A stretch of 64,000 bases of DNA from Desulforamulus ruminis DSM 2154. Lineage in GTDB: Bacteria; Bacillota; Desulfotomaculia; Desulfotomaculales; Desulfotomaculaceae. The stretch covers positions 2,988,120-3,052,119 of the forward strand of contig NC_015589.1 in assembly GCF_000215085.1 (NCBI RefSeq), written 5' to 3'. The notes below the pieces were generated by a model, which was not told the DNA's origin, did not search any database, and saw only the letters and a list, made by a program, of their open reading frames with translations. This document shows positions 13,666-26,735 of the stretch, piece after piece; the stretch's first letter is position 1, and the number at the start of each line of letters is the position of its first letter. The position numbers and the translations under genes were made by a program.

Positions 13666-13808
13666 CCCCTTACCTCCTCTTAAAATTATTTCCTAAGATA
13701 GATTTCCCCCGGGTAGTTAAATTATGCAGTTAGGGATAGAACCGGCCGGAGAGATTTACCAAGCGGCGATCAATTAAACAAAAATCGTTTTTTCAGGGAC
13801 CTGAAAAA

Positions 13809-13838
13809 CCCGAGGATAGATTAATTTCCATCCTCGGG
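13809..13838 (-). terminator. Intrinsic terminator in the leader of the DUF1614-spoIIP operon
   Basis: A 9-base stem (13809-13817 with 13830-13838) is followed by TTTTT on the minus strand. It lies about 145 bases upstream of the DUF1614 start and about 55-80 bases downstream of a minus-strand promoter. It may be an attenuator in the leader or the end of a short RNA. Confidence 0.65.
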
Positions 13839-13897
13839 CTTTCCATATAAATTTCTCAAGAAGAAGTGATCTTCAATGGTTTTTATCAAAATTTTGA

Positions 13898-13927
13898 ATT
13901 ATTAAAAAATTGAACTCTTTGTGTCAA
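13898..13927 (-). promoter_or_regulatory. Minus-strand promoter ahead of the leader terminator
   Basis: A perfect TTGACA (13927-13922) and AATAAT (13903-13898) are spaced by 18 bases on the minus strand. The predicted start near 13891 would give an RNA of about 85 bases if it stops at 13804. A second, sporulation-type promoter closer to the DUF1614 gene is possible (GCATA near 13725), but I cannot confirm it. Confidence 0.5.
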
Positions 13928-14262
13928 AATGAATCCTTGCAGTGCTAAAATTATTTTTTCAAAATCACTCAAAATACCTTCTATTCTCTAAATATCCGAT
14001 ATTAACAACCATTTGAGCAAAAAATTTGTCATTTCAATGATAATTTATTTGTCATTCAAACGACAAATAAACTTCAAAGCCAGTGCTATAACTATAATCG
14101 CTAGCAGTTTCGAATTCGAAACAAATTTTATTACCCCGGGTGTTTTACTTAAGTTGCAACGGAAAAGTGACAAGCTTGCCACAAGATCAGATTTTTTCTT
14201 GTCTCTGTGGTACTCTTCTGTAAAGACCGTACCCTCTGACAGAATAAAAGGAGGAGTAAAAA
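13928..14262. other. AT-rich non-coding interval upstream of the YeiH-type transporter
   Basis: Short frames exist on both strands, but none has a convincing ribosome site or protein-like composition. The last 15 bases hold the AAAGGAGGAG ribosome site of the gene at 14263. I see no riboswitch that I recognise. Confidence 0.5.
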
Positions 14263-15591
14263 ATGGCTGACACAAAACCCAGCGGTGGGTGGTCCGACCT
14301 ATATAAAAAGGAAGATTGGTGGGCTGTGTGGCTGGGACTTGGGCTTGTAATTATTGCCATTCTACTATGGTCTGCAGGCAATTCCATTAAAACCATTGCC
14401 GTGAGTGTTCCGGAATGGTCGGAATTTAGTACTGTTTTAGCACACCTGGGTGAAAAATTCGGCTCTTACGTGCTGTTATTTCTGGTATTCCTGGCGATTT
14501 TTTCTTTAGCCGTTAAAATTTTAGGCCATCCATTAAATCAGTTTATTCCGGGCTTTACCTTTGTCTTTGTTATGAGCGTCATTATTTCTGTTTTTGGCGC
14601 CTGGGACATGGCGGTGAAATACAATTTGGAAGCACCTCTGGTGGCCCTGGGCGTAGGAATGATCATCAGCAATACCCTGCCCATTCCCAGATGGCTGGAG
14701 GCCGCCTTGCGAACAGAATTCTATGTAAAAGTGGGTATTGTATTGTTGGGCGCCACCCTCCCCTTTACCTTAATTGTTCAAGCCGGTCCCTTGGCCTTTG
14801 GACAAGCAACCCTGATTGCGGTAACCACCTTCCTGACCATCTATTGGGCCGGCACCCGCCTCTTTGGCCTGGACCGGCGATTTGCGGCTACTCTGGGCGC
14901 CGGCGGCTCCATTTGCGGCGTATCGGCTTCCATCGCCATTGGAGGTGCTGTTAAAGCGGAAAAGCAGCACGTGTCGGTTTCCATTTCCCTGGTGGTTGTT
15001 TGGGCTATTATTATGATTTATTCACTGCCGATTCTCATTAAAATCTTTGACATTCCCTCCGGGCCCGCCGGAGCCTGGATCGGAACTTCGGAGTTTGCCG
15101 ATGCGGCGGGCATTGCTGCGGCGGCTGCCATCAACGAACAGGCTATTGCAACCTTTACTTTAATGAAGGTGGTTGGCCGGGATATGTTTGTGGGTATCTG
15201 GTGTTTTATCCTGGCCCTGATCTCCATTACTAAATGGGAAAAGCGCGAAGACGGAACCAAGCCGGATGCCAAAGAAATTTGGTATCGGTTCCCCAAGTTT
15301 GTGATTGGCTTCTTTATCGCCTCCGCTTTGGTAACGCTGGTTATTACCTCCGTGGATGCCGATAGCGCCAAGGCCATTACCGACAGCGTTATTAAACCCT
15401 TGAAGACCTTGCGAACCTGGGCCTTTATCTTCTGTTTCTTCGCCATCGGCCTCACCACCCGCTTCAGAGAGCTGACCGCCGTTGGCTGGAGACCCTTTGC
15501 CGCCTTTACCACCGGTGTACTGATTAACGTGCCTTTGGGTTACATCTTATCCGTACTGGTTTTTGGCAGCTATTGGATGTCTGTACAATAA
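14263..15591 (+). CDS. YeiH/UPF0324-type putative sulfate exporter family transporter
   Basis: A 442-residue integral membrane protein with about ten to eleven hydrophobic segments. Conserved blocks of the family (Cons_hypoth698, PF03601) are visible: LVALGVGMIISNTLPIP, KVGIVLLGATLPF, GAGGSICGVSASIAIGGAV and FADAAGIAAAAAINEQAIATFTLMKVVGRDM. Proteins of this family are annotated as putative sulfate/sulfonate exporters; the substrate here is not shown by sequence. The ATG at 14263 has an ideal GGAGGAG site. It is monocistronic, transcribed away from the DUF1614 operon and closed by a strong terminator. Confidence 0.88.
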   Translation: MADTKPSGGWSDLYKKEDWWAVWLGLGLVIIAILLWSAGNSIKTIAVSVPEWSEFSTVLAHLGEKFGSYVLLFLVFLAIFSLAVKILGHPLNQFIPGFTFVFVMSVIISVFGAWDMAVKYNLEAPLVALGVGMIISNTLPIPRWLEAALRTEFYVKVGIVLLGATLPFTLIVQAGPLAFGQATLIAVTTFLTIYWAGTRLFGLDRRFAATLGAGGSICGVSASIAIGGAVKAEKQHVSVSISLVVVWAIIMIYSLPILIKIFDIPSGPAGAWIGTSEFADAAGIAAAAAINEQAIATFTLMKVVGRDMFVGIWCFILALISITKWEKREDGTKPDAKEIWYRFPKFVIGFFIASALVTLVITSVDADSAKAITDSVIKPLKTLRTWAFIFCFFAIGLTTRFRELTAVGWRPFAAFTTGVLINVPLGYILSVLVFGSYWMSVQ

Positions 15592-15593
15592 CG

Positions 15594-15637
15594 AAACACA
15601 GACCCCCCGGGGAGTTATCCCCGGGGGGTCTGTGTTT
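15594..15637 (+). terminator. Strong intrinsic terminator of the YeiH-type gene
   Basis: A perfect 20-base stem (15594-15613 with 15618-15637) with a GTTA loop starts 2 bases after the stop codon. Its ends are AAAC/GTTT, so it can also serve the convergent gene ending at 15665. Confidence 0.9.
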
Positions 15638-15664
15638 ATAAAGTATAACGTTGTTTATAACGGT

Positions 15665-16033
15665 TTAAAGCATACCCCATTTACGGTTGTATTCAACCTT
15701 TAACACATATTCATCATCCCGAAAGCCCTTTTCCTTTAACAAAGCAATGGCCTCATTGAAATCCAGGGATTCGGTTTCCATAATAACCTGATCCTTTTTA
15801 CCCGTAACGGCCCAGTCACTATGGGCTGTTGTCAATATCTCCATCATGGCCGCAATGCGGTCCAGCCGGGAAGCTAAAAACTCACCCAGATTGCGCAGGG
15901 CCTCCGGCGTCACTTCCTTTGCTCCGGCCACAGCCTTAAGGGGCGGCTTTTCCCCGGGTTTCCATTCCCTTTTTTCGTAAAAGTCAAAAAAGAAACGAAC
16001 CAATTGGATGCAGGTGATGTTATCCTTATGCAC
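15665..16033 (-). CDS. Hypothetical protein, 122 residues
   Basis: A GTG at 16033 preceded by AAAGGGAG opens a 122-residue frame, MHKDNITCIQLVRFFFDFYEKR at its start. It is hydrophilic and mostly helical by appearance, with no signal peptide, membrane segment or metal motif. The C-terminal part (SLDFNEAIALLKEKGFRDDEYVLKVEY) looks like a compact alpha/beta unit. I do not recognise the family. It stands alone, convergent with the transporter and next to the left edge of the Rhs island. Confidence 0.7.
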   Translation of the reverse strand: MHKDNITCIQLVRFFFDFYEKREWKPGEKPPLKAVAGAKEVTPEALRNLGEFLASRLDRIAAMMEILTTAHSDWAVTGKKDQVIMETESLDFNEAIALLKEKGFRDDEYVLKVEYNRKWGML

Positions 16034-16130
16034 GGCAAATCTCCCTTTGTTGAATGTTCTTTTTTAATTATACACCCTTTTAAGGGCTTTTTATTTGTTT
16101 TAGGACCTATTTCTAAATAAGCGAAGTAAA

Positions 16131-16164
16131 AGAAGCCGGCTGCCGTTTCCGGCTGCCGGCTTCT
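16131..16164 (-). terminator. Terminator of the duplicated rpsA tail (copy A)
   Basis: A 10-base stem (16131-16140 with 16155-16164) encloses an inner GCCG/CGGC stem. The same structure, with small changes, follows the complete ispH-rpsA gene at about 26374-26404. Confidence 0.75.
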
Positions 16165-16175
16165 TTATTAAAGTT

Positions 16176-16489
16176 TTATTTTTCTTCCTGTTTAAACATG
16201 TCGCCAAAGACATCTCCCAGGGTGGGTCCGTTTTCTTCTTTGTTCTCTTCAACAACCGGTGCTGTTTCCTGCTTGTTCTGGCGGGGCTCCCGGGCCGGGC
16301 GGCCTTCACTGTTCACCTCGCGAATGGAAAGACGGATGCGTTTTTCCACAGGATCCACACTGAGGACCTTCACATTAACCTCTTCGCCTTCGCGGACCAC
16401 CTCATCGGGCTTAGCCACATGACGGTCCGCCAGGTGAGAAATGTGAACCAGTCCCTCAACCCCCGGCTCCAATTGAACAAAGGCGCCAA
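16176..16489 (-). pseudogene. Duplicated 3' end of the ispH-rpsA gene (remnant)
   Basis: This copies the last 104 codons of the ispH-rpsA gene at 26422-28461: residues GAFVQLEPGVEGLVHISHL through the FKQEEK terminus. I count 5 base differences in the 308 bases from 16182 to 16489, at a constant offset of 10246 and without gaps. Homology stops abruptly at 16489, in the middle of the fourth S1 domain. An open frame runs on to an ATG at 16520, but that start lies beside the hairpin at 16525-16572 and the added residues are not S1-like. A separate functional protein is therefore unlikely. The copy marks the left edge of the Rhs island. Confidence 0.85.
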
Positions 16490-16524
16490 CTATGACCGCC
16501 CCTTTGTCACCGTTACGCATAAAA

Positions 16525-16572
16525 AAGCCCTCTTACAGTAATTATTTTAATTATTCTACCATAAGAGGGCTT
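16525..16572 (-). terminator. Intrinsic terminator after the orphan immunity gene
   Basis: An 11-base stem (16525-16535 with 16562-16572) with a 26-base loop is followed by TTTT on the minus strand. It is about 50 bases past the stop of the gene ending at 16621 and abuts the duplicated rpsA tail. Confidence 0.75.
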
Positions 16573-16620
16573 CGAGAGTTTCAACCTGTTTTTAAATAAG
16601 ATAGTCTCATCCGAAATGGT

Positions 16621-16977
16621 TTATTCTTCTACATTTATCAAATAACTGTAAAATTCTTCGTGAAGGGCGGTTCTGCCTTTTAATGATTCTTTTGTCTCTT
16701 GATCCACTAAATCAATAGTAAATTTGTTAGCAAGATCATCACCACCATCTATCATAACCAAGATAGAGTGAATAGTTCCTTTGATAAGCTCATCTAGCAC
16801 AACCATAAAAGCATCCTTCTCTTCCCTAGAACTAATTCTTTCTTGTAAAATACGGTATTGTTCTTCTACGTCTGACCAGATAAGGTCAGAATTTTTTTCA
16901 AGACTATCTCTACCTGTATAAACCCAATAGTCTTTGATGGTTTTTAATTGTTCCAGCAATAGCTGTCTTTTATACAC
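16621..16977 (-). CDS. Probable immunity protein of the orphan Rhs toxin tip
   Basis: A 118-residue, acidic, soluble protein with no signal peptide. The GTG start at 16977 follows GAAGGTGA. It sits 17 bases behind the orphan toxin frame, the position where polymorphic toxin loci keep their cognate immunity gene. The sequence (QYRILQERISSREEKDAF, VMIDGGDDLANKFTIDLVD, TALHEEFYSYL) looks like the small alpha/beta immunity proteins of such loci, but I cannot name a family. Function is therefore inferred from position and size. Confidence 0.6.
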   Translation of the reverse strand: MYKRQLLLEQLKTIKDYWVYTGRDSLEKNSDLIWSDVEEQYRILQERISSREEKDAFMVVLDELIKGTIHSILVMIDGGDDLANKFTIDLVDQETKESLKGRTALHEEFYSYLINVEE

Positions 16978-16994
16978 TAACTATTCACCTTCCT

Positions 16995-17360
16995 TTATTC
17001 TTTGAACCAATACTGCCCATATCTTTCGTTTATATTTTTTGCAAAGTTTTGAATCTCCTTAGCTGTTGGGGTTCTCCCTAAACCTTTTTCCCATTTAGCC
17101 CACTCGTTTGTTATTTTGGAGTGTATCTTAGGGTCTACTCCCTTTAGATAAGTAACCTCATGTATATTGATCCCTGCTTTGCTCATAATGGCCTGATACT
17201 TTTGTGGCAAAGTATGATGTACCTGCCATCCTTTTGGTAAACCTGGGAACTTTTCTAAATATAGGCTCCTATAATTTGCGCTTGTTGCAAGTTTACTTGC
17301 CCCTTTCCCCAATATTTTTGAAACGATATTATTAATGCTCCCTGCGGGAAACAGTAACAA
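16995..17360 (-). CDS. Orphan Rhs C-terminal toxin domain (HNH/Endo VII-like)
   Basis: This frame carries a toxin-like domain joined to the Rhs junction sequence PELLLLFPAGS. The motif GWQVHHTLPQKYQAIM, followed by a histidine in DPKIHSKITNEW and a conserved tail ERYGQYWF, resembles the HHxxPQ-type nucleases of the HNH/Endonuclease VII superfamily seen at Rhs/CDI C-termini. A TTG at 17360 is the first possible start, but the frame is open upstream to about 17612, where a 4-base deletion breaks it from the Rhs core remnant. Whether it is expressed alone or is a silent cassette for recombination is unknown. The nuclease call is inference. Confidence 0.6.
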   Translation of the reverse strand: MLLFPAGSINNIVSKILGKGASKLATSANYRSLYLEKFPGLPKGWQVHHTLPQKYQAIMSKAGINIHEVTYLKGVDPKIHSKITNEWAKWEKGLGRTPTAKEIQNFAKNINERYGQYWFKE

Positions 17361-17702
17361 CAGTTCTGGTTCCGCATCGGGTGGAGGACCAATTAATGTA
17401 GCAGCCAGTTTTCCAGAGCTGTATCTCGAAATATCTGAGCTGGACTTCGTAACAGAAGATGATGAGTTAACACTTCCTGTCCCGCTTGACCCAGTCCCCC
17501 CATTCCATGGTTTGTAGACCCTGTCTCCACCGCCCGAGGTATTGGTTGCTGCCTGGCTGTAATCGGTGTAATCATCCCCTACGTTGGTCCCAATGATCTC
17601 TCCAAATCGATTATATATTTATGACCGCTTGGGTCGATATAAAGAAGAGGGTTATTGGCACAATAGGCATAGAGGTTAAAGGATAAAGGATTGACATATC
17701 CC
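17361..17702 (-). pseudogene. Remnant of the Rhs core/junction region
   Basis: This stretch is a close copy of 18385-18744 in the large Rhs gene. It encodes the end of the Rhs core (FNLYAYCANNPLLYIDPSGHK) and the Ser/Gly-rich junction. Relative to the intact gene 4 bases are missing near 17611-17620, so the core and the junction are in different frames. Homology begins abruptly near 17702, inside the Rhs-associated core. It is the usual footprint of a displaced 'orphan' Rhs tip. Confidence 0.8.
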
Positions 17703-17845
17703 CCTCCAATAACCACCGCAGCAAGGCAAAGCTTAAGGGCTTACCGCCTGCGCTTCACAGACAGCAAGCCCTGCCAGCTGCTTAATTAAAAATATTGTCT
17801 AACTTTTTGGGGTCACTTCAGAAAAGGAACGTCCTTTTCTATATT
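17703..17845. other. Spacer between the orphan tip and the Rhs immunity gene
   Basis: It has no reading frame of note. A 9-base hairpin (17820-17828 with 17832-17840) follows the stop of the gene at 17846. Its composition is less AT-rich than the flanks, and it may be the scar of the rearrangement that displaced the tip. Confidence 0.4.
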
Positions 17846-18031
17846 TTATAAAGGATAATTTACACAAGCTTCACATATCTTTTCAATTTCGTTATTTGAT
17901 TTTCTAAGTATTTTTTTAATTTCGATTAAATACTCCTCTTTTTTAGCCTTAATTAACTCATAGTTAATTTCTACACATTTTCCTTCTTCAATCTCTTTAT
18001 TCAATAAGGGGCAGAAATATTTTTCTGTCAT
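17846..18031 (-). CDS. Probable immunity protein of the Rhs toxin, 61 residues
   Basis: A small soluble protein, MTEKYFCPLLNKEIEEGKC at its start and CEACVNYPL at its end, with four cysteines that could bind a metal. Its ATG overlaps the Rhs stop codon (ATGA, 18028-18031), so it is made together with the toxin. Small 'CPLL.KEI..G.C' proteins often follow Rhs or YD-repeat genes whose C-terminus has an 'H..Q...RG' toxin domain, as here. Immunity function is inferred from overlap, size and that association. Confidence 0.65.
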   Translation of the reverse strand: MTEKYFCPLLNKEIEEGKCVEINYELIKAKKEEYLIEIKKILRKSNNEIEKICEACVNYPL

Positions 18032-21000
18032 TTCATTGCCTCCTTTAATACTTGATTGACTATTGTATCAAAGTGATTTTTACCATATGTTGTAATAATT
18101 TTTCCAGCTTTATCAACGACAACAACTGCATCACGTGAAACGTATGCGAAAGCATTTCCACCACGCTGAGATAATACAACAGTTGGATTATCTATAGTCC
18201 TTTTAATTATGTTTGTAGTAACACCACGTGTTATAGCTTGGTTAACTCCATGTGTTGAGAAGTCAGTTATCTTAATACCAGGATTTTTAACGACAGTTCC
18301 AAATTTACCATAAGACTTTCCTAAGTTAGCCACAGTATTAGCGGCAGAACCCGCCCCCTTAATAAGATTAGCAAAGTTCCCTCCAGGAAATAGTAATAGA
18401 AGTTCCGGTTTTGCATCGGGTAAAGGACCAATTAATGTAGCAGCCACCTTTCCAGAGCTGTATCTCGAAATATCTGAGCTGGACTTCGTAACAGAAGATG
18501 ATGAGTTAACACTTCCTGTCCCGCTTGACCCAGTCCCCCCATTCCATGGTTTGTAAACCCGGTCTCCACCGCCCGAGGTATTGGTTGCTGCTTGGCTGTA
18601 GTCGGTGTAATCATCTCCGACGTTGGTTCCAATGATCTCTCCAAATCGATTATATACATATTTATGACCGCTTGGGTCGATATAAAGGAGGGGGTTATTG
18701 GCACAGTAAGCATAGAGGTTAAAGGTTAAAGGATTAACGATATCGCCCTCATAGCTGTCCTTGTTGATAAACCGCCCAATGCTGGGGTCATAGTAGCGAG
18801 CCCTCAGGTAGTACAAACCGGTTTCCGCATCATAGATTTCCCCCGCATATTTGAACGGGTTCTTTACTTGTTCAGTTTGGCTTAGGATATTCCCCCATTC
18901 ATCATAACGGTATTCGTTGACAATATTCCCGTCGGAGTCTATGATCTGGCTGACATCGCCGTGGCCGTTATAAAGGTAATAGTATTCTTTTCCATTGGGT
19001 TCCTTTTTCACCAGTACACGGTCCGGTCCCCAAACGTAGTTGGCCGTCAGGGTATTGGATGCGTCGGATTCGGCAATAACTTCACCTTGGTTGTTGTAGT
19101 GGTAACGTGTGGTTTCTGTAGGCGTCACTTTTTTGGTTCTCAGACCGGTGGGTCCATATTGGAAGGCGGCTGCGTTGGTTCCGGTCTGCACACTAGTCAA
19201 CTGATCCCATTCGTTGTAGGCATAGTCAGTGTTTTCCAGGTTGATGGACCAGGTGTCGTTTTTAACGGTACTGCGATTGCCTCGGACATCATAGGCATAT
19301 TGGGTGATCTTTCCATCCGGCCGTTGAATCTCTATTAAGCGGTCCAACTTGTCATAGATGTAAGTTGTCGTTCCCAAAGCATCGGTAATGCCGGTAATAT
19401 TGCCGTTATTATCATAGGAGTAGGCGTACTGGGAAAGAGTCTGAGCCCCTTTGGTGCTGGTCAATTTGGTTAGTCGGTTAAGATCATTGTATTCGTAACT
19501 GGTTTTTAGGTAGCTGCCGTCCTTTAGTTTCGGATAGGTGACAGATTTTAACATTCCGTTGGGATAATATTCATATTTTGCATTGACTTCGTCCGATGTG
19601 TTGCTGGAGGCGCTGCCGTTGGTTTGTACCCTGGTTAAGCGGTTCTTGTTGTATCCATAGAGTGTCGTATGGGAGAACGGGTCTTGTACGCCGGTCAGGT
19701 TCCCTACTTTATCATAGGAAAAATAGGTTTTGTGTTCATACACTTCATTGTAAAGAACGGAATAATCTATTTGTCCCTTTGGATTGTAGTTAAATCCCTG
19801 CAGACGGACTAGCTGGGAATTGCTCAACTGTTCAATCCAGGATACGCCCAGCGGATTGTAATAGGTATAGGCAAAGGATGAAGTCGGGCCGTTTTTGGTT
19901 ATTTCCCGCCAATGGGCATCGTAGGTGTAGTGGAAGGTATTTTGGTTTAAATCCTTTCTTTGCTCCAGCAACCCTAGCGCATTGTACGCGAAAGGCTCTG
20001 CTGCCGAAGAGGGAGCGATCTTCTTGGTTAGCCGTGCCAATTCATCGTATTCCCTGGAGGTTACCCAGCTTTTTGTCCCATCGGTTTGTTTAATGGTTCT
20101 CAGTTCGCCCAGGGCGGTATATCCATATTCGGTAACTTGATTTAACGGATCTCTAATTTGCTGCAACCGGTCCAGCTTATCATAGGAATAAGTGGTGGTA
20201 CCATTATTCGGGTCGGTATGGGTCAGAATATTGCCGGCAATATCGTAAGTATAGTTTTCCGAAATGGCACCGACGGTATTGGGCCAGGATGGGAAGGCTT
20301 TCTTTTGGATTACTTGTCCCCATTGATCCAGGTAGGTTTCCACTACATTCTGCTTGGTAGTGGTGCCATTAGCCATAAAGTAGCTGGTTTGTTTTCTGGG
20401 AATCAGTTCATAATCCGTTTGATAGACATTGCCCAGGGGATCAACCGTTCTATATAGTCCACCCCAGGGGTTATAGGCATAGGTGCTGCTGTTTCCTTCG
20501 GCATCCACAACATAGTTGGGACGGGTCAGATCGTCATAGTGGTACTGGCTTTGTATCACCCAGGCGCCCCTTTGATAATCCCACAAATCCTGCAGGCGCA
20601 GGTTGCCAAAGCCGTCATAGAAAGTCTCAAGTTCATCATACTTGTTGGTTGTTCCGGTGGCAAGATCTTTGTAGAGAGTATAGGAGGTGATTCCGGTACC
20701 GATAAGATTTTTGTTGGTTGCGTCAAAGAAAGCAGAAGTAGCATAATCATATTCAAATTTCTGTTCTACTTCGTATGTCTTCTTATCGGAATTTGAATCA
20801 ACCGTGCTGTAGTTGGGAAGTTTTATGGATGTTACCCGGGCAAGATTATCGTAGGTGTAGGTTGTGGTTTTACCGTCATTGTCTGTTTCCGTTTGAGGCA
20901 ATCCAAGTAATAAATTATAGGTTCTGGTAGTCTTTGTTTCTTTGCTGCTGCCACCGGCGTCGGTATAAAATTCCTTAATTATAGTCGGGAAGGCCAATTT

Positions 21001-23100
21001 GGCTTCAGTTCCATAAATCATTATGGTTCTAGCGGTTTTACCGTTTTCCAGACTCTTGGTAATTGTGACTTGATCTCCCTCGGAGGTATTGCTGTAGGCA
21101 TAATTGGTGGTTTCACCGTTGGGATTGGTCGCAGTCAGAATTCTTCCCAGATCATTAAAGATTGTTGTTTCGGTTCGTAAGGTTGAAGTATTTTGATACC
21201 ATTTTCTTTCAGTAAGAAATTTATAAGTGGGATGGTATTGATAGGTCGTGGTGTATAATGCTTTAATGGAAGGATTATTCAATTGCTCTTGGGTTAAAGG
21301 TTGGGTTTCGCTGCTTAATCCTCCCCAATCATTATAGGTCTGGTCGATATAAAGCTTATTGGAAGTGCCGCCGCTGGAGTATTCGGCAATTTCCGTTCTG
21401 GTTGGTTTGAATTTATAGTTTGCATCATAGGCTAAATGAGAAATGATTTTCTTTTCTCCGTTGCTAGCCGTTGTTTCTGTTCGTAGTTTCTGTTTGGCAC
21501 CGTTAAAAACGGCCTTGGATTTTAAGCTCGTCCCGGCGGCGGTGGCTTCTGAGCTAAACTGATAACTTTCCGGCAGTGCTTCATCCCAGGGATAAGTGGG
21601 ATATCCGGTATAGTCGTTTACATACTGGTAATCAATGTGATTAAGGTCCCCGCTGGTAGATGCCTGACCGGTATTGGGGTCATACCTCCGTTCCTGGTCG
21701 TAACGTGATTTCACCCGATATCCTTGATAGGCGCCATCGGGTCCCAGGTTCCGTAAAACAGGACCTTCATAGTTATAGGTACTTTTTGAATGGGGATACC
21801 ATACATCTTTCAACCAGGCCAAAGTGGTATAAGCCTGGGATGAAGACAGATTTTTGGTGGTATACATAAATTTTGTCTCAGGGAAGTCATAATTGTATTT
21901 CGTTTCAAATCCTTCAGGGTCTGTGACGCTGTAGAGACGCACATCATACCATGTTTGTCCGGTATCCACTCGGTTAACTACAATTCTTTGTTTATTATAT
22001 TTAATAGATAGATTTTTACTCTTAGCGGGATCATTTACTTTGATAAAGATATTTTCCGATTCGCTGGTATTAATGGTGTTCTCATAGGTAAAATCTATGG
22101 TTCTGCCAATACTATCAACAATCTGTGATATAAACGGGTAATTCACGCCATGGATCGAACGGTTAATATGGGTAAATTTAATTTGATTACCAAACCGGTC
22201 TTTAACCCCAATGATTCTCCCATCCGCAGCGAAATAGGTTTTTCGCTGGTCTGAATTAACAAATACATATTGAGAGGACACTTGACCGTTACTGTATGAG
22301 GCATTGTCCTGGAGAAATTGAACATCTTTTCCCTGATAATTTTCCAGGTTGCTGTCTGTTGTGTCCGGAGTCATTCTTACACGGTAGGTCGCTCCTGTTC
22401 CATCATGAAAGAATAGCTCTTTCGACCCGTTGTTTTCTTCAATTTGTACGGATGGGAAGGCCAGGGACCAGCCATTACCGATATCGTATCTGGATCTTAG
22501 ATAATTGTATTTATCCGGATAGTTTTGAGTTGTAACCGTGTAGCTTTCATAGTAGATAACCTGGCTGTTATAGTAAATTCTGTAACTATAATAATAGATA
22601 TTGGGATTGGATGTATCGTTTAAATATGATTCTGCTACAGAAACAGCCTGTGAGGAGGTGGAATAAGGTCCAACCGTCTTGGTTCCCCATCTTTTATTAA
22701 TTTTGTCATAGGTGGTAATATCTGCATAATAGGCCGAGTAAGACTCTGTCCACGACTCGGATGAAGAAGTCACTTTGACCCGTTTGGTTCCAATCTCTGC
22801 CTGGGAAGAATTATAGATCCTGGCAATAGAAAGATCCAACCCGTCTTTTCCGGGCAAGGTTACATCCGTTTGTTTCAGAGTTAGTGACCCTGTCATAGGA
22901 TCCACCAGCTCAGTTGTGTTGTTCCTGTCGTTAAGCTGGGGTTTTTTTACTTCATTTACCTGCTGAGGTGTTACCAGTCCATTAATAACCCCTTCTAATT
23001 GCTGTATATTTACACTGGCATAAGCCGTTTGGCTGATTAAAATTACAATGAGAAGGCTAAAAAATACCGTTTTTATACCTTTTAACAGTTTATTCATCAC
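18028..23100 (-). CDS. Secreted Rhs/YD-repeat polymorphic toxin
   Basis: A 1690-residue secreted protein. A signal peptide (GIKTVFFSLLIVILISQTAYA) is followed by an N-terminal domain with DPMTGSLTLKQTDVTLPG and then many YD repeats such as YDKLDRLQQIRDPLNQVTEYGYT. These build the Rhs cocoon. The Rhs-associated core ends with GLYYLRARYYDPSIGRFINKD near residue 1433 and DPSGHKYVYN. A Ser/Gly-rich junction and PELLLLFPGG near residue 1571 precede the variable C-terminus. The last 90 residues (DFSTHGVNQAITRGV, NPTVVLSQRGGNAFAYV) look like a DUF4258/BECR-type RNase toxin; this is inference. The start is GTG/ATG at 23100/23097 after AGGAGGTGA. A small immunity gene overlaps the stop. Confidence 0.9.
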   Translation of the reverse strand: MMNKLLKGIKTVFFSLLIVILISQTAYASVNIQQLEGVINGLVTPQQVNEVKKPQLNDRNNTTELVDPMTGSLTLKQTDVTLPGKDGLDLSIARIYNSSQAEIGTKRVKVTSSSESWTESYSAYYADITTYDKINKRWGTKTVGPYSTSSQAVSVAESYLNDTSNPNIYYYSYRIYYNSQVIYYESYTVTTQNYPDKYNYLRSRYDIGNGWSLAFPSVQIEENNGSKELFFHDGTGATYRVRMTPDTTDSNLENYQGKDVQFLQDNASYSNGQVSSQYVFVNSDQRKTYFAADGRIIGVKDRFGNQIKFTHINRSIHGVNYPFISQIVDSIGRTIDFTYENTINTSESENIFIKVNDPAKSKNLSIKYNKQRIVVNRVDTGQTWYDVRLYSVTDPEGFETKYNYDFPETKFMYTTKNLSSSQAYTTLAWLKDVWYPHSKSTYNYEGPVLRNLGPDGAYQGYRVKSRYDQERRYDPNTGQASTSGDLNHIDYQYVNDYTGYPTYPWDEALPESYQFSSEATAAGTSLKSKAVFNGAKQKLRTETTASNGEKKIISHLAYDANYKFKPTRTEIAEYSSGGTSNKLYIDQTYNDWGGLSSETQPLTQEQLNNPSIKALYTTTYQYHPTYKFLTERKWYQNTSTLRTETTIFNDLGRILTATNPNGETTNYAYSNTSEGDQVTITKSLENGKTARTIMIYGTEAKLAFPTIIKEFYTDAGGSSKETKTTRTYNLLLGLPQTETDNDGKTTTYTYDNLARVTSIKLPNYSTVDSNSDKKTYEVEQKFEYDYATSAFFDATNKNLIGTGITSYTLYKDLATGTTNKYDELETFYDGFGNLRLQDLWDYQRGAWVIQSQYHYDDLTRPNYVVDAEGNSSTYAYNPWGGLYRTVDPLGNVYQTDYELIPRKQTSYFMANGTTTKQNVVETYLDQWGQVIQKKAFPSWPNTVGAISENYTYDIAGNILTHTDPNNGTTTYSYDKLDRLQQIRDPLNQVTEYGYTALGELRTIKQTDGTKSWVTSREYDELARLTKKIAPSSAAEPFAYNALGLLEQRKDLNQNTFHYTYDAHWREITKNGPTSSFAYTYYNPLGVSWIEQLSNSQLVRLQGFNYNPKGQIDYSVLYNEVYEHKTYFSYDKVGNLTGVQDPFSHTTLYGYNKNRLTRVQTNGSASSNTSDEVNAKYEYYPNGMLKSVTYPKLKDGSYLKTSYEYNDLNRLTKLTSTKGAQTLSQYAYSYDNNGNITGITDALGTTTYIYDKLDRLIEIQRPDGKITQYAYDVRGNRSTVKNDTWSINLENTDYAYNEWDQLTSVQTGTNAAAFQYGPTGLRTKKVTPTETTRYHYNNQGEVIAESDASNTLTANYVWGPDRVLVKKEPNGKEYYYLYNGHGDVSQIIDSDGNIVNEYRYDEWGNILSQTEQVKNPFKYAGEIYDAETGLYYLRARYYDPSIGRFINKDSYEGDIVNPLTFNLYAYCANNPLLYIDPSGHKYVYNRFGEIIGTNVGDDYTDYSQAATNTSGGGDRVYKPWNGGTGSSGTGSVNSSSSVTKSSSDISRYSSGKVAATLIGPLPDAKPELLLLFPGGNFANLIKGAGSAANTVANLGKSYGKFGTVVKNPGIKITDFSTHGVNQAITRGVTTNIIKRTIDNPTVVLSQRGGNAFAYVSRDAVVVVDKAGKIITTYGKNHFDTIVNQVLKEAMK

Positions 23101-23114
23101 TCCACGCTCACCTC

Positions 23115-23951
23115 CTATTTCCGATTTATTTCTGCGTGATACCCTTTAATTAATTCTTTTACCGGAACGTTTACTTCTTGGGAGATCATCTCCATTTTCT
23201 CGATCATATCTTCGGATAACCCTTTCGTATCCTGTTCCGTTAAGCCATACTTGTCCATTTTCTCTTTAGAAATCTTTCCGTGCAGCCTGGGGTTTTTAAT
23301 AATATTTTTTAACCCTTCTTCCCCGTTTTGCTTATAAGACTTCGTTAATTCTTCAATGGAGGAAACCATCTGCTGGTCATACATGGCAAGTAGTGTAAAT
23401 TGTTCTTCTTCAGAGAAGCCTTGATCTTCAAGCTGTTTAGATTCTTTTGGATATTTGCTTTTAAATTTAGTAATAAATTTTTCTGCCCTCTCCGTAAAAA
23501 GCTTTTTCTCGACTTCCTCCCAGTTTTTATCAAGTTCTTTTTTCCTTTTCAATAAATTTTTCGGCTCTTCATGAATCTTGTTGGCTAGTTCATCCGCTTT
23601 AAAAATATCTGATACGGAGTAACCTTCTTGTATCAGGTTTGCCAATTCTTCACCTTCAATGTGATAGGTGTCTTCTTTGAAAGCATCGCCGCTTTCTAAG
23701 GATTCTCTCTGCCCTTGATACAGCACTCCATCTCCATTAGTGATTTCCAGCAGAATGTCACCCATAGGACTATCAATACCTCTATTCAATTCTTTTACCA
23801 CTTGCTTCCCAGGAGTGCTTTTTAATAAAGGACTGTCCGACAGGTTTGCCTTTTTCATAAACTCACCGGCAATTCCTATTGACAGAAAACTCATACTGGA
23901 CAAAATAAAACTAAAGCACAAAATAAGTGCCAATATTTTTTTCTTTTGCAT
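23115..23951 (-). CDS. Secreted protein of unknown function in the Rhs locus
   Basis: A 278-residue protein with a signal peptide (KILALILCFSFILSSMSFL). The mature part is very rich in Lys and Glu and strongly helical, probably partly coiled coil (KNLLKRKKELDKNWEEVEKKL). Short motifs such as GEELANLIQEGYSVSDIFKADELANK resemble the helical segments that often precede Rhs cores in Firmicutes. The ATG at 23951 follows GGGGAGG; the stop lies 14 bases before the Rhs start. It is probably exported with the Rhs protein. I do not recognise a family. Confidence 0.75.
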   Translation of the reverse strand: MQKKKILALILCFSFILSSMSFLSIGIAGEFMKKANLSDSPLLKSTPGKQVVKELNRGIDSPMGDILLEITNGDGVLYQGQRESLESGDAFKEDTYHIEGEELANLIQEGYSVSDIFKADELANKIHEEPKNLLKRKKELDKNWEEVEKKLFTERAEKFITKFKSKYPKESKQLEDQGFSEEEQFTLLAMYDQQMVSSIEELTKSYKQNGEEGLKNIIKNPRLHGKISKEKMDKYGLTEQDTKGLSEDMIEKMEMISQEVNVPVKELIKGYHAEINRK

Positions 23952-24006
23952 TTTATATCCTCCCCTATATGCTGTTCATTTTTTATAACCATAAAAACGT
24001 TGCTTG

Positions 24007-25236
24007 TTATTGGGACGGTCTTCTTTTAGACAGCAGGTTCCCATTGTTATCGTAGACTAATTGAAAAACAGGAATCCCGTTTTGGAGAACATTTACAAGC
24101 CGTCCGTCGTCGTCATACCCATATTCATATGAACTGTTTAACTGCCCAACTGATAATCGCGCCTTTACACTACCTCCGGCATATCCGCCCAACTTAATGT
24201 AATAAGTTACCCCCGCTTTCATCTCCCACTTAATTTCAGAGTAGGGAGTACTGTTCGCATCATCATTATAGGTTAGTCGATTTAATAGAGTGGCATCACT
24301 GTACAGATAAAGTACGGTGTCATATTGCTGACCTGTTCCTCCGTAAAGGCCGGTGTAAATGCGATAATTACCCGAAGCGGCCGGAGTAAATCGATAGTAC
24401 CCATATTCATATACCGGTATGGACACATCGATGGGATTGTTCATTTGCAGATCTACGAAATTTCGGACAGCCTTTGTAACAGTAATTCTTGTTCGAACAC
24501 GTTCCCCGTTATATCCCATTAATTTGATGTAATAGCTTGTCCCAGCAGGCATCTCTCGCTTTATCTCGGAGAAAGATGTTCCGTTATAATCATCATTGGC
24601 TCCAATCAGCTTGGTTAAATTCTCATCACTGTAAAGATATAAAACGGTATCGCCGGAACCGTTACTGCTTGAACCGCCGTAGTAATCGGTAAAAATTCGA
24701 TAGAAATCCGGTGTACTGGGTGTAAATTTATATACTTTATATTCTCCCTGCGGTATATCCACATCAATCGGTGTATTTAAGGAAATTGTCACAGGTGAAA
24801 CATAGACATAGGTTGCCGTTAACCTGGCATGGACAGCATCACTGGCACTATAGGTTCTTAATTTAACGTAATAACTGACGCCAGACGTAAGGCCCAGTAT
24901 AATCTCGGAAAAAGATGTTCCATTTGCATCATCATTGTAGGCAATTCGCTGTGTAAGGTTAGCATCAGAATACAGTTCAAGTACTGTATCGTTTGAACTC
25001 CCAGTGCCCCCGTATGGGCCGGTAAAAATTTTATGAGTTCCTGTGTTTGTCGGAGTAAACCGATAAACTTGACTCTGACCTGCAGGCAGATTTACATCAA
25101 TGGGTGTATTTAATAAAAGATCCATTGTAGATTGTATGCCTACCTCATTGGCTTGATAGAGCCTTTCACCTTCAACCCCTTCATTTGAAAGCTGCTGTAG
25201 GAATTCTTCAATCCAATAATGATATACAGCTTCCAA
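24007..25236 (-). CDS. Pre-peptidase (PPC) repeat and YD-motif protein, downstream part of a split gene
   Basis: This frame codes for three bacterial pre-peptidase C-terminal-like beta domains of about 115 residues. Each has the pattern IDV..P.G....Y.FTP, TVL.LYSD..L...I..NDD and SYY.KL (roughly residues 35-145, 150-265, 268-380). They are followed by a single YD unit, YGYDDDGRLVNVLQNG, with NNGNLLSKRRPSQ at the end. The only available start is a TTG without a ribosome site. It is in the same frame as the upstream ORF 25252-26103, separated by one TAA, so the two are most likely one gene with a nonsense codon. Alone it would lack a signal peptide. Confidence 0.75.
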   Translation of the reverse strand: MEAVYHYWIEEFLQQLSNEGVEGERLYQANEVGIQSTMDLLLNTPIDVNLPAGQSQVYRFTPTNTGTHKIFTGPYGGTGSSNDTVLELYSDANLTQRIAYNDDANGTSFSEIILGLTSGVSYYVKLRTYSASDAVHARLTATYVYVSPVTISLNTPIDVDIPQGEYKVYKFTPSTPDFYRIFTDYYGGSSSNGSGDTVLYLYSDENLTKLIGANDDYNGTSFSEIKREMPAGTSYYIKLMGYNGERVRTRITVTKAVRNFVDLQMNNPIDVSIPVYEYGYYRFTPAASGNYRIYTGLYGGTGQQYDTVLYLYSDATLLNRLTYNDDANSTPYSEIKWEMKAGVTYYIKLGGYAGGSVKARLSVGQLNSSYEYGYDDDGRLVNVLQNGIPVFQLVYDNNGNLLSKRRPSQ

Positions 25237-25251
25237 TTTATTAAAGTCATA

Positions 25252-26103
25252 TTACTTGTCTTGAAAATATTCATTAATTTTTGTCTCTAATGATCCGTAG
25301 ACCTCTTCAGTAACGCTCTGAGATTCGTCTGAAATTGACGATGAAAATTGCGGATTCTCGATAGAAACATCATCCTTCTGACTTTGCTCAGGTACGATTT
25401 CTTCTGAAACACCCAATGACTGTAGATTCTCAATAGTTTCATCATTTTCACTTTTCTCAGTCTTTTCTTCCTCAGACATATAAACTTCTTCAACAACGCT
25501 TGATGATTTCTCGAAAAGCTGAGATGAATCCATGTCTTCCATTGTCAAATCATTTTTACTATACTCAAAGTTAGTCTCCTCAGTCATATTCACTTCTTTA
25601 ACAAGCTCAAACTCCTCTGGTAGTTGATGTAACTCTAAATTGACAATGAGCAAATCGTTATATTTTTGCTCAATTTGTTTTGCCAAAGGGATATTCCCTT
25701 CTCTTATGGCGTATTCTTTCAATCTAAGAAGTTTCTTGCTCAAATCCAAAAGTTTAATATCCTTATATTTAATTGAAAAAGACGTGGTTGGCTGGACCGG
25801 TAACGTGCCCAAGTCTGCAGTCGACTTCTCTGTCTCTTCTTCTGTTGCGCGGGGGACTGCCATGGGTTCGGATAATATCCCGTCAGTTTCATCTATTAAG
25901 TTACTTAAAGGATCCATACTTGGAGGCTCTAAATCAGTTTCTACTTCTAAGTCTTTATTTTCTGTGGAACTGTCAATGACACTCTCTTCCTGTAAGTCTA
26001 CTTGAGTACTATCATCTAAAGATGCTAGCCCCATACAAGGAAGACTTATTAATTGAAAAACCAGAGATAAAATCAATAAAATACTTAATAATCCTTTTCT
26101 CAT
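25252..26103 (-). CDS. Secreted low-complexity protein, upstream part of a split PPC/YD gene
   Basis: A 283-residue frame with a clear signal peptide (GLLSILLILSLVFQLISLPC), which may be a lipobox-type site because cysteine follows. It then has an acidic Ser/Glu-rich region and a helical part near residues 115-160 (DLSKKLLRLKEYAIREGNIPLAKQIEQKY). An ATG at 26103 follows AAGGAGGGG. The frame ends in a TAA at 25252-25254 and continues open in the same frame into the PPC/YD domains. Without that codon the protein would be 698 residues, with export signal, linker, three PPC domains and a YD tail. It is the first gene of the Rhs island in the direction of transcription. Confidence 0.7.
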   Translation of the reverse strand: MRKGLLSILLILSLVFQLISLPCMGLASLDDSTQVDLQEESVIDSSTENKDLEVETDLEPPSMDPLSNLIDETDGILSEPMAVPRATEEETEKSTADLGTLPVQPTTSFSIKYKDIKLLDLSKKLLRLKEYAIREGNIPLAKQIEQKYNDLLIVNLELHQLPEEFELVKEVNMTEETNFEYSKNDLTMEDMDSSQLFEKSSSVVEEVYMSEEEKTEKSENDETIENLQSLGVSEEIVPEQSQKDDVSIENPQFSSSISDESQSVTEEVYGSLETKINEYFQDK

Positions 26104-26370
26104 TTAAACCCCTCCTTACAAAGTTAAAATTTTTTACAACTACTCCCTCATGCATCCCTCCTTTGAGATATAATTAGAACAAAAAATCGACAATTTATCC
26201 TATTTTTAAACTAGATAATATACAAAAAATTTATATTATTTACTTATTATACAAATAATATAATCTTTCACTAGATCAATTCCCTATTATGCCTGAATCT
26301 TACCCTAAGTTGCCTATATAGTTATCACAAAAATATTTTTATATTTTGGGAGATCAGTTGTTTCAACAAA
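26104..26370. other. AT-rich non-coding interval, likely promoter region of the Rhs operon
   Basis: Very AT-rich compared with the housekeeping genes around it. A minus-strand TTGTCG near 26195 with a TATAT-rich element downstream could be the operon promoter, but spacing is poor. No gene is seen. Confidence 0.4.
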
Positions 26371-26373
26371 AAG

Positions 26374-26404
26374 AAACCGGCTGCCGTTTCCGGCTGCCGG
26401 TTCT
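26374..26404 (-). terminator. Terminator of ispH-rpsA (copy B)
   Basis: AACCGGC/GCCGGTT (26375-26381 with 26396-26402) encloses an inner stem with a TTTC loop and is followed by TTTCTTTTT on the minus strand. It is homologous to the hairpin at 16131-16164. Confidence 0.75.
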
Positions 26405-26735
26405 CATTACTGATTACATTTTTACTTTTCTTCCTGTTTAAACATGTCGCCAAAAACATCTCCCAGGGTGGGTCCGTTTTCTTCTTTGTTCTCTTCAACA
26501 ATCGGTGCTGTTTCCTGCTTGTTCTGGCGGGGCTCCCGGGCCGGGCGGCCTTCACTGTTCACCTCGCGAATGGAAAGACGGATGCGTTTTTCCACAGGAT
26601 CCACACTGAGGACCTTCACATTAACCTCTTCTCCTTCGCGGACTACCTCATCGGGCTTGGCCACATGACGGTCCGCCAGGTGAGAAATGTGAACCAGTCC
26701 CTCAACCCCCGGCTCCAATTGAACAAAGGCGCCAA
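26374..26735 (-). repeat. Direct repeat bounding the Rhs island (copy B; copy A at 16131-16489)
   Basis: The segment covers the terminator and the last 308 coding bases of ispH-rpsA. Copy A has about 98% identity over 16182-16489; the terminators are homologous with small insertions and deletions. The two copies are in the same orientation and 10246 bases apart, exactly bracketing the Rhs/toxin genes. Confidence 0.88.

What the first reader, a model, noticed from the sequence alone, without database searches (positions are those of the whole stretch)
16621..17702. Displaced orphan toxin tip plus immunity gene sharing the Rhs junction sequence
A fragment of the Rhs core and junction (17361-17702) copies 18385-18744, then diverges exactly after PELLLLFPAG into a different, HHxxPQ-type toxin domain with its own immunity candidate. 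A 4-base deletion cuts it from the core. Rhs loci in proteobacteria keep such silent tips for exchange by recombination; here the same is seen in a spore former.
Basis: partly seen in the sequence, partly recalled or inferred. Interest (0 to 1): 0.75.

Follow-up and report, generated by a model that had tools for sequence, protein, structure and literature searches.

The report
Orphan Rhs toxin tip with immunity gene
Next to its working contact-killing (Rhs) gene, this rumen sulfate-reducing spore former keeps a silent spare toxin tip (probably a DNA-cutting enzyme) with its own protective gene, cut off from a former second Rhs gene; it is a clean new case of an arrangement already known in many bacteria.

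Summary
[quoted passage not shown] It diverges just after PELLLLFPAG into a different tip, followed 17 nt later by a 118-codon gene. The tip is best read as a divergent HNH/DUF2380-like nuclease; this is inferred.

Two corrections. The 4-bp deletion is real but does not sever the tip: homology stops at a 120-bp remnant of an IS3-family transposase and nothing of the core lies beyond it. And the arrangement is not new for spore formers: a congener and other loci found here show the same, and toxin cassettes in firmicutes are in the literature. Core-side codon differences are 12 synonymous to 1 non-synonymous, so the fragment was recently part of a working Rhs gene. A 107-bp identical run hints at exchange between the copies. 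New member of a known kind.

The parts
16621..16977 (-). Orphan immunity gene candidate, 118 codons, GTG start
   Evidence: Conserved next to the tip in L003 (55%), L004 (52%), L005 (59%) and L082 (59%); AAAGGAAGG at 16996-16988 lies 10 nt before the GTG; third-position differences exceed first/second
16995..17339 (-). Orphan toxin tip (unique part), WQVHHTLPQ...DPKIH...ITNEW domain, divergent DUF2380/HNH-like nuclease candidate
   Evidence: 66-73% identical tips in three species plus 57% in L082; DUF2380 E = 6.6e-4, below gathering score
17340..17702 (-). Fragment of Rhs core end, DPSG region, serine-rich linker and junction PELLLLFPAG, homologous to the main gene
   Evidence: 90.6% identity to 18367-18750
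17410..17516 (-). 107-bp run identical between orphan and main gene; possible exchange tract
   Evidence: Permutation P = 0.0014 over all sites, 0.017 over third positions
17616..17622 (.). Site of the 4-bp deletion relative to the main gene (frameshift in the orphan's core remnant)
   Evidence: BLASTN alignment; sequence comparison
17703..17823 (+). 3' end of an IS3-family transposase gene plus its right terminal sequence, fused to the end of the orphan core fragment
   Evidence: 90% identical second remnant at genome position 1,950,354; rve_2 E = 0.004 here and 3e-7 in the other copy; IS3 family transposase under the plasmid match in Brevibacillus
17846..18031 (-). Main immunity gene candidate, 61 codons, overlaps the main rhs stop codon
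   Evidence: 49% identical homologue directly after the homologous Rhs tip in L086
18031..18378 (-). Main Rhs tip (different toxin; weak DUF4258)
   Evidence: 45% identical tip at the end of a frame with RHS core in L086; Pfam DUF4258 E = 0.15 only
18028..23100 (-). Main Rhs gene, 1690 codons, N-terminal signal-like sequence, RHS/YD repeats
   Evidence: RHS_repeat 6e-44; Rhs_assc_core 1e-24
18367..18750 (-). Main-gene copy of the shared junction block

Best explanation
The region is an orphan Rhs toxin/immunity module: the 3' end of a former second Rhs gene, with its own tip and immunity gene, left downstream of the main rhs/immunity pair after its 5' part was lost at an IS3-family insertion. 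The tip most likely is a metal-dependent nuclease of the HNH/DUF2380-like kind that would be carried into neighbouring cells on the end of an Rhs protein, and the 118-residue protein would neutralise it. In its present state the tip is silent (no start codon, no export part, a truncated and frameshifted core remnant), while the immunity gene keeps a ribosome-binding site and could be translated from read-through of the Rhs operon. Because 17340-17616 is colinear and in phase with the main core, homologous recombination there could put this tip on the main gene in place of the present one. Shown: anatomy, homology, conserved pairing, attachment to RHS repeats elsewhere, IS remnant, absence of the island in congeners. 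Inferred: nuclease activity, neutralisation, expression, exchange.
For: Shared junction at 90.6% with abrupt divergence after PELLLLFPAG. Pair conserved in four other contigs in the same order. Cytobacillus L005: 20 RHS repeats, pre-toxin TG domain, then this tip and the immunity gene; Paenibacillus popilliae L003: pretoxin HINT domain, then this tip and the immunity gene. Invariant WQVHH..P and DP..H...TN shared with a group of toxin C-termini; 8 of 12 alignment members match PF01844 HNH, and the profile matches solved Cas8f-HNH fusions, E = 0.0018. A DUF2380 protein, pMF1.20, cuts DNA in vitro and is inhibited by its partner (PMC6091211). Core-side codon differences 12 synonymous to 1 non-synonymous. 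Homology ends at the IS3 remnant. The frame relation is a coordinate fact: offset 1039, which is 1 mod 3, with main stop at 18028 (1 mod 3) and tip stop at 16995 (0 mod 3).
Against: The tip's own best family score is below the curated cut-off (19.6 against 26.3 bits). The AlphaFold model is poor (pLDDT 64) and finds no fold match; the immunity model is worse (pLDDT 51). No toxicity, expression or exchange has been measured. With only two IS3 remnants in the genome and no intact copy, the order of insertion and deletion is a reconstruction.
Confidence: 0.88

Rival explanations
1. Decaying relic: the orphan is simply the remains of a second Rhs gene destroyed by an IS3-associated deletion, with no present role for tip or immunity gene.
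For: Truncation exactly at an IS remnant, a frameshift already present in the core remnant, no translation start for the tip.
Against: Tip and immunity frames are intact over 300 and 354 coding bases, the immunity gene keeps a ribosome-binding site, and a 107-bp identical run suggests exchange with the main gene. Recent orphaning would also leave them intact, so this is not excluded.
Confidence: 0.35
2. Immunity keeper: the module is retained because the orphan immunity protein protects against neighbours that use this tip; the tip is a passenger.
For: Intact immunity gene with a ribosome-binding site, co-directional with the main operon. Poole et al. found the orphan immunity protein made but not the orphan toxin in E. 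coli EC93 (PMC3150448).
Against: The toxin part is also intact, which immunity alone does not explain; only one strain of this species was searched.
Confidence: 0.35
3. Acquired cassette: the tip, immunity gene and a short core stretch arrived as a ready-made module by recombination, not by decay of a tandem full-length Rhs gene.
For: Cassettes with short junction homology are common (PMC3482391); P. popilliae L003 shows a second module sharing only 58 bp of junction.
Against: Here the homology runs 360 bp into the core and stops at the IS remnant, not at a junction motif, and core differences are almost all synonymous, as expected of a gene that was working.
Confidence: 0.25

Closest known systems
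Orphan rhs-CT/rhsI module of Salmonella Typhimurium LT2 (PMC3967940)
   Same: Downstream of main rhs and its immunity gene, shares several hundred bp of core with it (522 bp at 95% there, 384 columns at 90.6% here), lacks start and export parts, carries its own immunity gene
   Different: Here in a spore former with a Sec-type Rhs; truncated at an IS3 remnant and frameshifted in the core remnant; recombination not shown
Orphan cdiA-CT/cdiI and rhs-CT/rhsI modules (PMC3150448) and polymorphic-toxin cassettes (PMC3482391)
   Same: Silent alternative toxin tips with cognate immunity genes next to a full-length toxin gene
   Different: Only one module here; different delivery protein family from CdiA
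DUF2380 / SitA6 nuclease toxins of myxobacteria (PF09533, TIGR02269; pMF1.20, PMC6091211)
   Same: HHxxPQ motif region, paired immunity protein, remote sequence match
   Different: Scores below curated cut-offs; not a lipoprotein; 118-residue immunity protein without a Pfam match
Truncated lrhA (Rhs) genes of Listeria seeligeri (PMC10327511)
   Same: Partial Rhs genes in a firmicute suggested as templates for tip diversification
   Different: Type VII secretion context; different toxin

Membership tests
[quoted passage not shown]
   Main rhs 18028-23100(-), main immunity 17846-18031(-), orphan 16621-17702(-)
Orphan rhs-CT/rhsI module | Retains a fragment of the conserved core homologous to the main gene, then diverges at the junction | tested here: met
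   90.6% over 384 columns; divergence after PELLLLFPAG
Orphan rhs-CT/rhsI module | Lacks translation start and export signals | tested here: met
   First possible start is TTG 17360 inside the junction; 207-codon open frame without upstream start
Orphan rhs-CT/rhsI module | Followed by its own immunity gene, specific to this tip | tested here: met
   Same pair in L003, L004, L005 and L082; no other match to the immunity profile in 398 genomes of the phylum. Pairing is what was tested; specific neutralisation was not
Orphan rhs-CT/rhsI module | Same tip found on an Rhs protein elsewhere | tested here: met
   L005 frame with 20 RHS repeats ending in this tip
Orphan rhs-CT/rhsI module | Tip is toxic and neutralised by the immunity protein | not testable with these tools
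   Needs expression
DUF2380 / SitA6 lipoprotein toxins | Score above curated cut-off | tested here: not met
   PF09533 19.6 against 26.3 bits; TIGR02269 13.3 against 85.75 bits
DUF2380 / SitA6 lipoprotein toxins | Lipoprotein delivery and double-CXXCG immunity neighbour | tested here: not met
   Tip sits behind RHS or HINT parts; the immunity protein has no Pfam match
HNH endonuclease superfamily | Direct match of the tip to an HNH profile | tested here: inconclusive
   No direct Pfam HNH match; 8 of 12 members of alignment A3 match PF01844 and the A3 profile matches Cas8f-HNH at E = 0.0018; the aligned motif HH..P / DP..H is invariant
HNH endonuclease superfamily | Beta-beta-alpha metal fold | tested here: inconclusive
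   Model pLDDT 64; no fold match

The most novel reading that the evidence does not exclude
The locus is a live two-tip switch in an anaerobic endospore former: main and orphan tips exchange through the in-phase 277-bp homology, with recent gene conversion leaving the 107-bp identical run, while the orphan immunity protein is always made, so that cells can change toxin without being exposed to the new tip.
Probability: 0.2. Interest if true: 0.45.

Novelty: new member of a known kind. Interest (0 to 1): 0.27.

Why it matters
It is an orphan tip in a strictly anaerobic spore former, far from the enterobacteria where tip switching was studied, with a clear cause of truncation and an intact toxin/immunity pair whose immunity protein has no Pfam family. 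It gives a testable pair (nuclease tip, 118-residue immunity protein) and a natural place to ask whether Rhs loci of spore formers switch tips as Salmonella does.

Tried and rejected
Structure route: AlphaFold of the tip (12 rows, pLDDT 64) and of the immunity protein (4 rows, pLDDT 51) were too poor; Foldseek against the PDB gave nothing. Sequence search of the immunity profile against solved structures gave only chance hits. PHROGs and PADLOC gave no usable match. Plasmid and phage collections hold no tip homologue; one Priestia plasmid holds a short immunity-like stretch. Promoter-like sites were at chance level (6 found, 6.0 expected); one lies across the 4-bp deletion, but no start codon follows, so I do not build on it. 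The tip profile in 398 genomes of the phylum found only the own copy plus remote relatives, and the immunity profile only the own copy, so the module's close relatives are scattered: Cytobacillus, Paenibacillus, a Chloroflexi MAG and a virus-labelled contig, where binning may be wrong. Considered and rejected: chance similarity (E = 2e-152) and an unrelated toxin-antitoxin pair (the junction and DPSG region are Rhs).

Full report
Where it is. The window lies at 2,988,120-3,052,119 of a one-contig genome of 3,969,014 bp. That is the published length of the chromosome of Desulfotomaculum (now Desulforamulus) ruminis DLT, a rumen sulfate-reducing spore former (PMC3569383); the identification rests on this length.

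The observation. The main Rhs gene (18028-23100, minus strand, 1690 codons) has RHS/YD repeats and an Rhs-associated core and begins with a signal-like stretch. Downstream of it and of a 61-codon gene (17846-18031) lies a second copy of the core end and junction, 17328-17706 against 18367-18750: 348 of 384 columns identical, with a 4-bp gap and a 1-bp gap. Both copies read PELLLLFP(A/G)G and then part. The orphan continues into a ~115-codon tip (stop at 16995) and, 17 nt on, a 118-codon gene (16621-16977) with AAAGGAAGG ten bases before its GTG. The tip's frame is open for 207 codons but has no usable start.

It is a toxin/immunity module. A scan of 84,980 species' genomes with the tip found close homologues in Paenibacillus popilliae (L003), a Chloroflexi MAG (L004) and Cytobacillus massiliigabonensis (L005), and a more distant group mainly in Bacillales and cyanobacteria. 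In all three close cases a homologue of the 118-residue protein follows directly (55, 52 and 59% identity). A virus-labelled contig (L082) holds the pair too (52-57% and 59%). In L005 the tip ends a 1435-codon frame with 20 RHS repeats and a pre-toxin TG domain; in L003 it follows a pretoxin HINT domain. An in-frame stop separates the L005 RHS frame from an upstream frame with a signal-like N-terminus; I did not read through it. Codon-position differences in both genes against relatives are highest at third positions, as for selected coding sequence.

What the tip may do. Its best family is DUF2380/SitA6, at scores below the curated cut-offs. Aligned with the distant group (A3), WQVHH-x-LP, DP-x-H and TN are invariant. 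Eight of the twelve members match Pfam HNH, and the A3 profile matches solved Cas8f-HNH fusions at E = 0.0018 over this motif. A DUF2380 protein, pMF1.20, cuts DNA and is inhibited by its partner (PMC6091211). I therefore infer a metal-dependent nuclease of HNH-like kind. The structure models were too weak to test it.

How it was displaced. The homology to the main core ends at 17702-17706, where the sequence becomes the 3' end of an IS3-family transposase gene read on the plus strand, followed by its right end (17703-17823). A 90% identical second remnant lies at 1,950,354 in the genome; neither the genome nor eight congeners hold more. The translated end matches Pfam rve_2 (0.004 here, 3e-7 in the other copy), and the matching plasmid stretch in Brevibacillus is annotated as an IS3 family transposase. 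So the cut is the loss of everything upstream at an IS3 insertion; the 4-bp deletion only frameshifts the last ~85 bp of core. On the core side of the linker (17517-17695) 12 differing codons are synonymous and 1 is not. The two copies thus diverged while both were translated under constraint, which fits a former second working Rhs gene better than a long-dead fragment. Nearer the toxin, differences are 6 synonymous and 4 not.

Signs of exchange. Between these lies a run of 107 identical bases (17410-17516); random placement of the 26 differences gives such a run with P = 0.0014, or 0.017 if only third positions are used. Sites are not independent, so this is suggestive only. The colinear part, 17340-17616, is in phase with the main gene (offset 1039, stops at 18028 and 16995), so a crossover there would keep the frame and remove the present tip and its immunity gene. 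I did not construct that product. Koskiniemi et al. reported such recombination in passaged Salmonella (PMC3967940); Poole et al. discuss the loss of immunity it brings (PMC3150448). Here it is inferred.

Surroundings. In eight congeners rpsA is followed by homologues of the 12886 and 11616 genes, and where the fetched stretch reaches far enough also of the 10569 and 8991 genes, without this island. In D. ruminis the stretch 13666-26421 lies between, with the last ~360 bp of rpsA present twice (16128-16489 and 26369-26735, 95.6%). The two copies are closer to each other than to any congener (72-76%). This fits integration by recombination at the rpsA end or a local duplication; I did not settle which.

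How common it is. One congener (G001) holds an array: three long Rhs core ends at 92-93% identity with different continuations, plus shorter pieces, on one 14-kb contig, and more on another. L081, in the same phylum, holds two core copies at 92% with different continuations, one of them a remote relative of this tip. L003 and L004 repeat their own junctions downstream (58 bp at 88%, 154 bp at 74%). The main tip with its 61-codon gene is also a conserved pair behind an Rhs core in L086. Zhang et al. describe such cassettes across phyla, firmicutes included (PMC3482391), and truncated lrhA genes in Listeria seeligeri were proposed as templates for diversification (PMC10327511). The finding is real and tidy but not a new kind.

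Verdict. Orphan Rhs toxin/immunity module: 0.88. Nuclease tip: about 0.75. Exchange with the main gene at some time: about 0.4. Present function (store, immunity or relic) is open; the rival probabilities overlap because they concern present use or origin, not identity.

Noticed in passing
window 16128-16489 and 26369-26735: The 3' end of the ispH-rpsA fusion gene is present twice (95.6%), flanking the whole Rhs island; eight congeners have no island between rpsA and the next gene.
   Followed up: partly
window 14263-16033: A YeiH-like gene and a 122-codon gene next to the island are absent behind rpsA in congeners but sit together elsewhere in one of them (G005, 86% and 66% identity).
   Followed up: partly
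L002 (genome C1:3349673-3350017): A stand-alone frame of 258 codons with a signal-like N-terminus ends in a distant HHxFPQ domain, a possible second nuclease toxin in the same genome.
   Followed up: no
L068 (G001:C25): A congener contig with three long Rhs core ends, several different tips and immunity-like genes: a longer orphan array.
   Followed up: partly
window 24007-25236: Gene upstream of rhs with DVUA0089-family repeats ending in a YD-like piece; a repeat-plus-YD protein also occurs beside Rhs fragments in G001 (L069 4575-6212).
   Followed up: no
window 17610-17637: The 4-bp deletion brings a TATAAT and a TCGACC to 16-nt spacing (10 of 12 promoter match); hits in the region are at chance number.
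   Followed up: no
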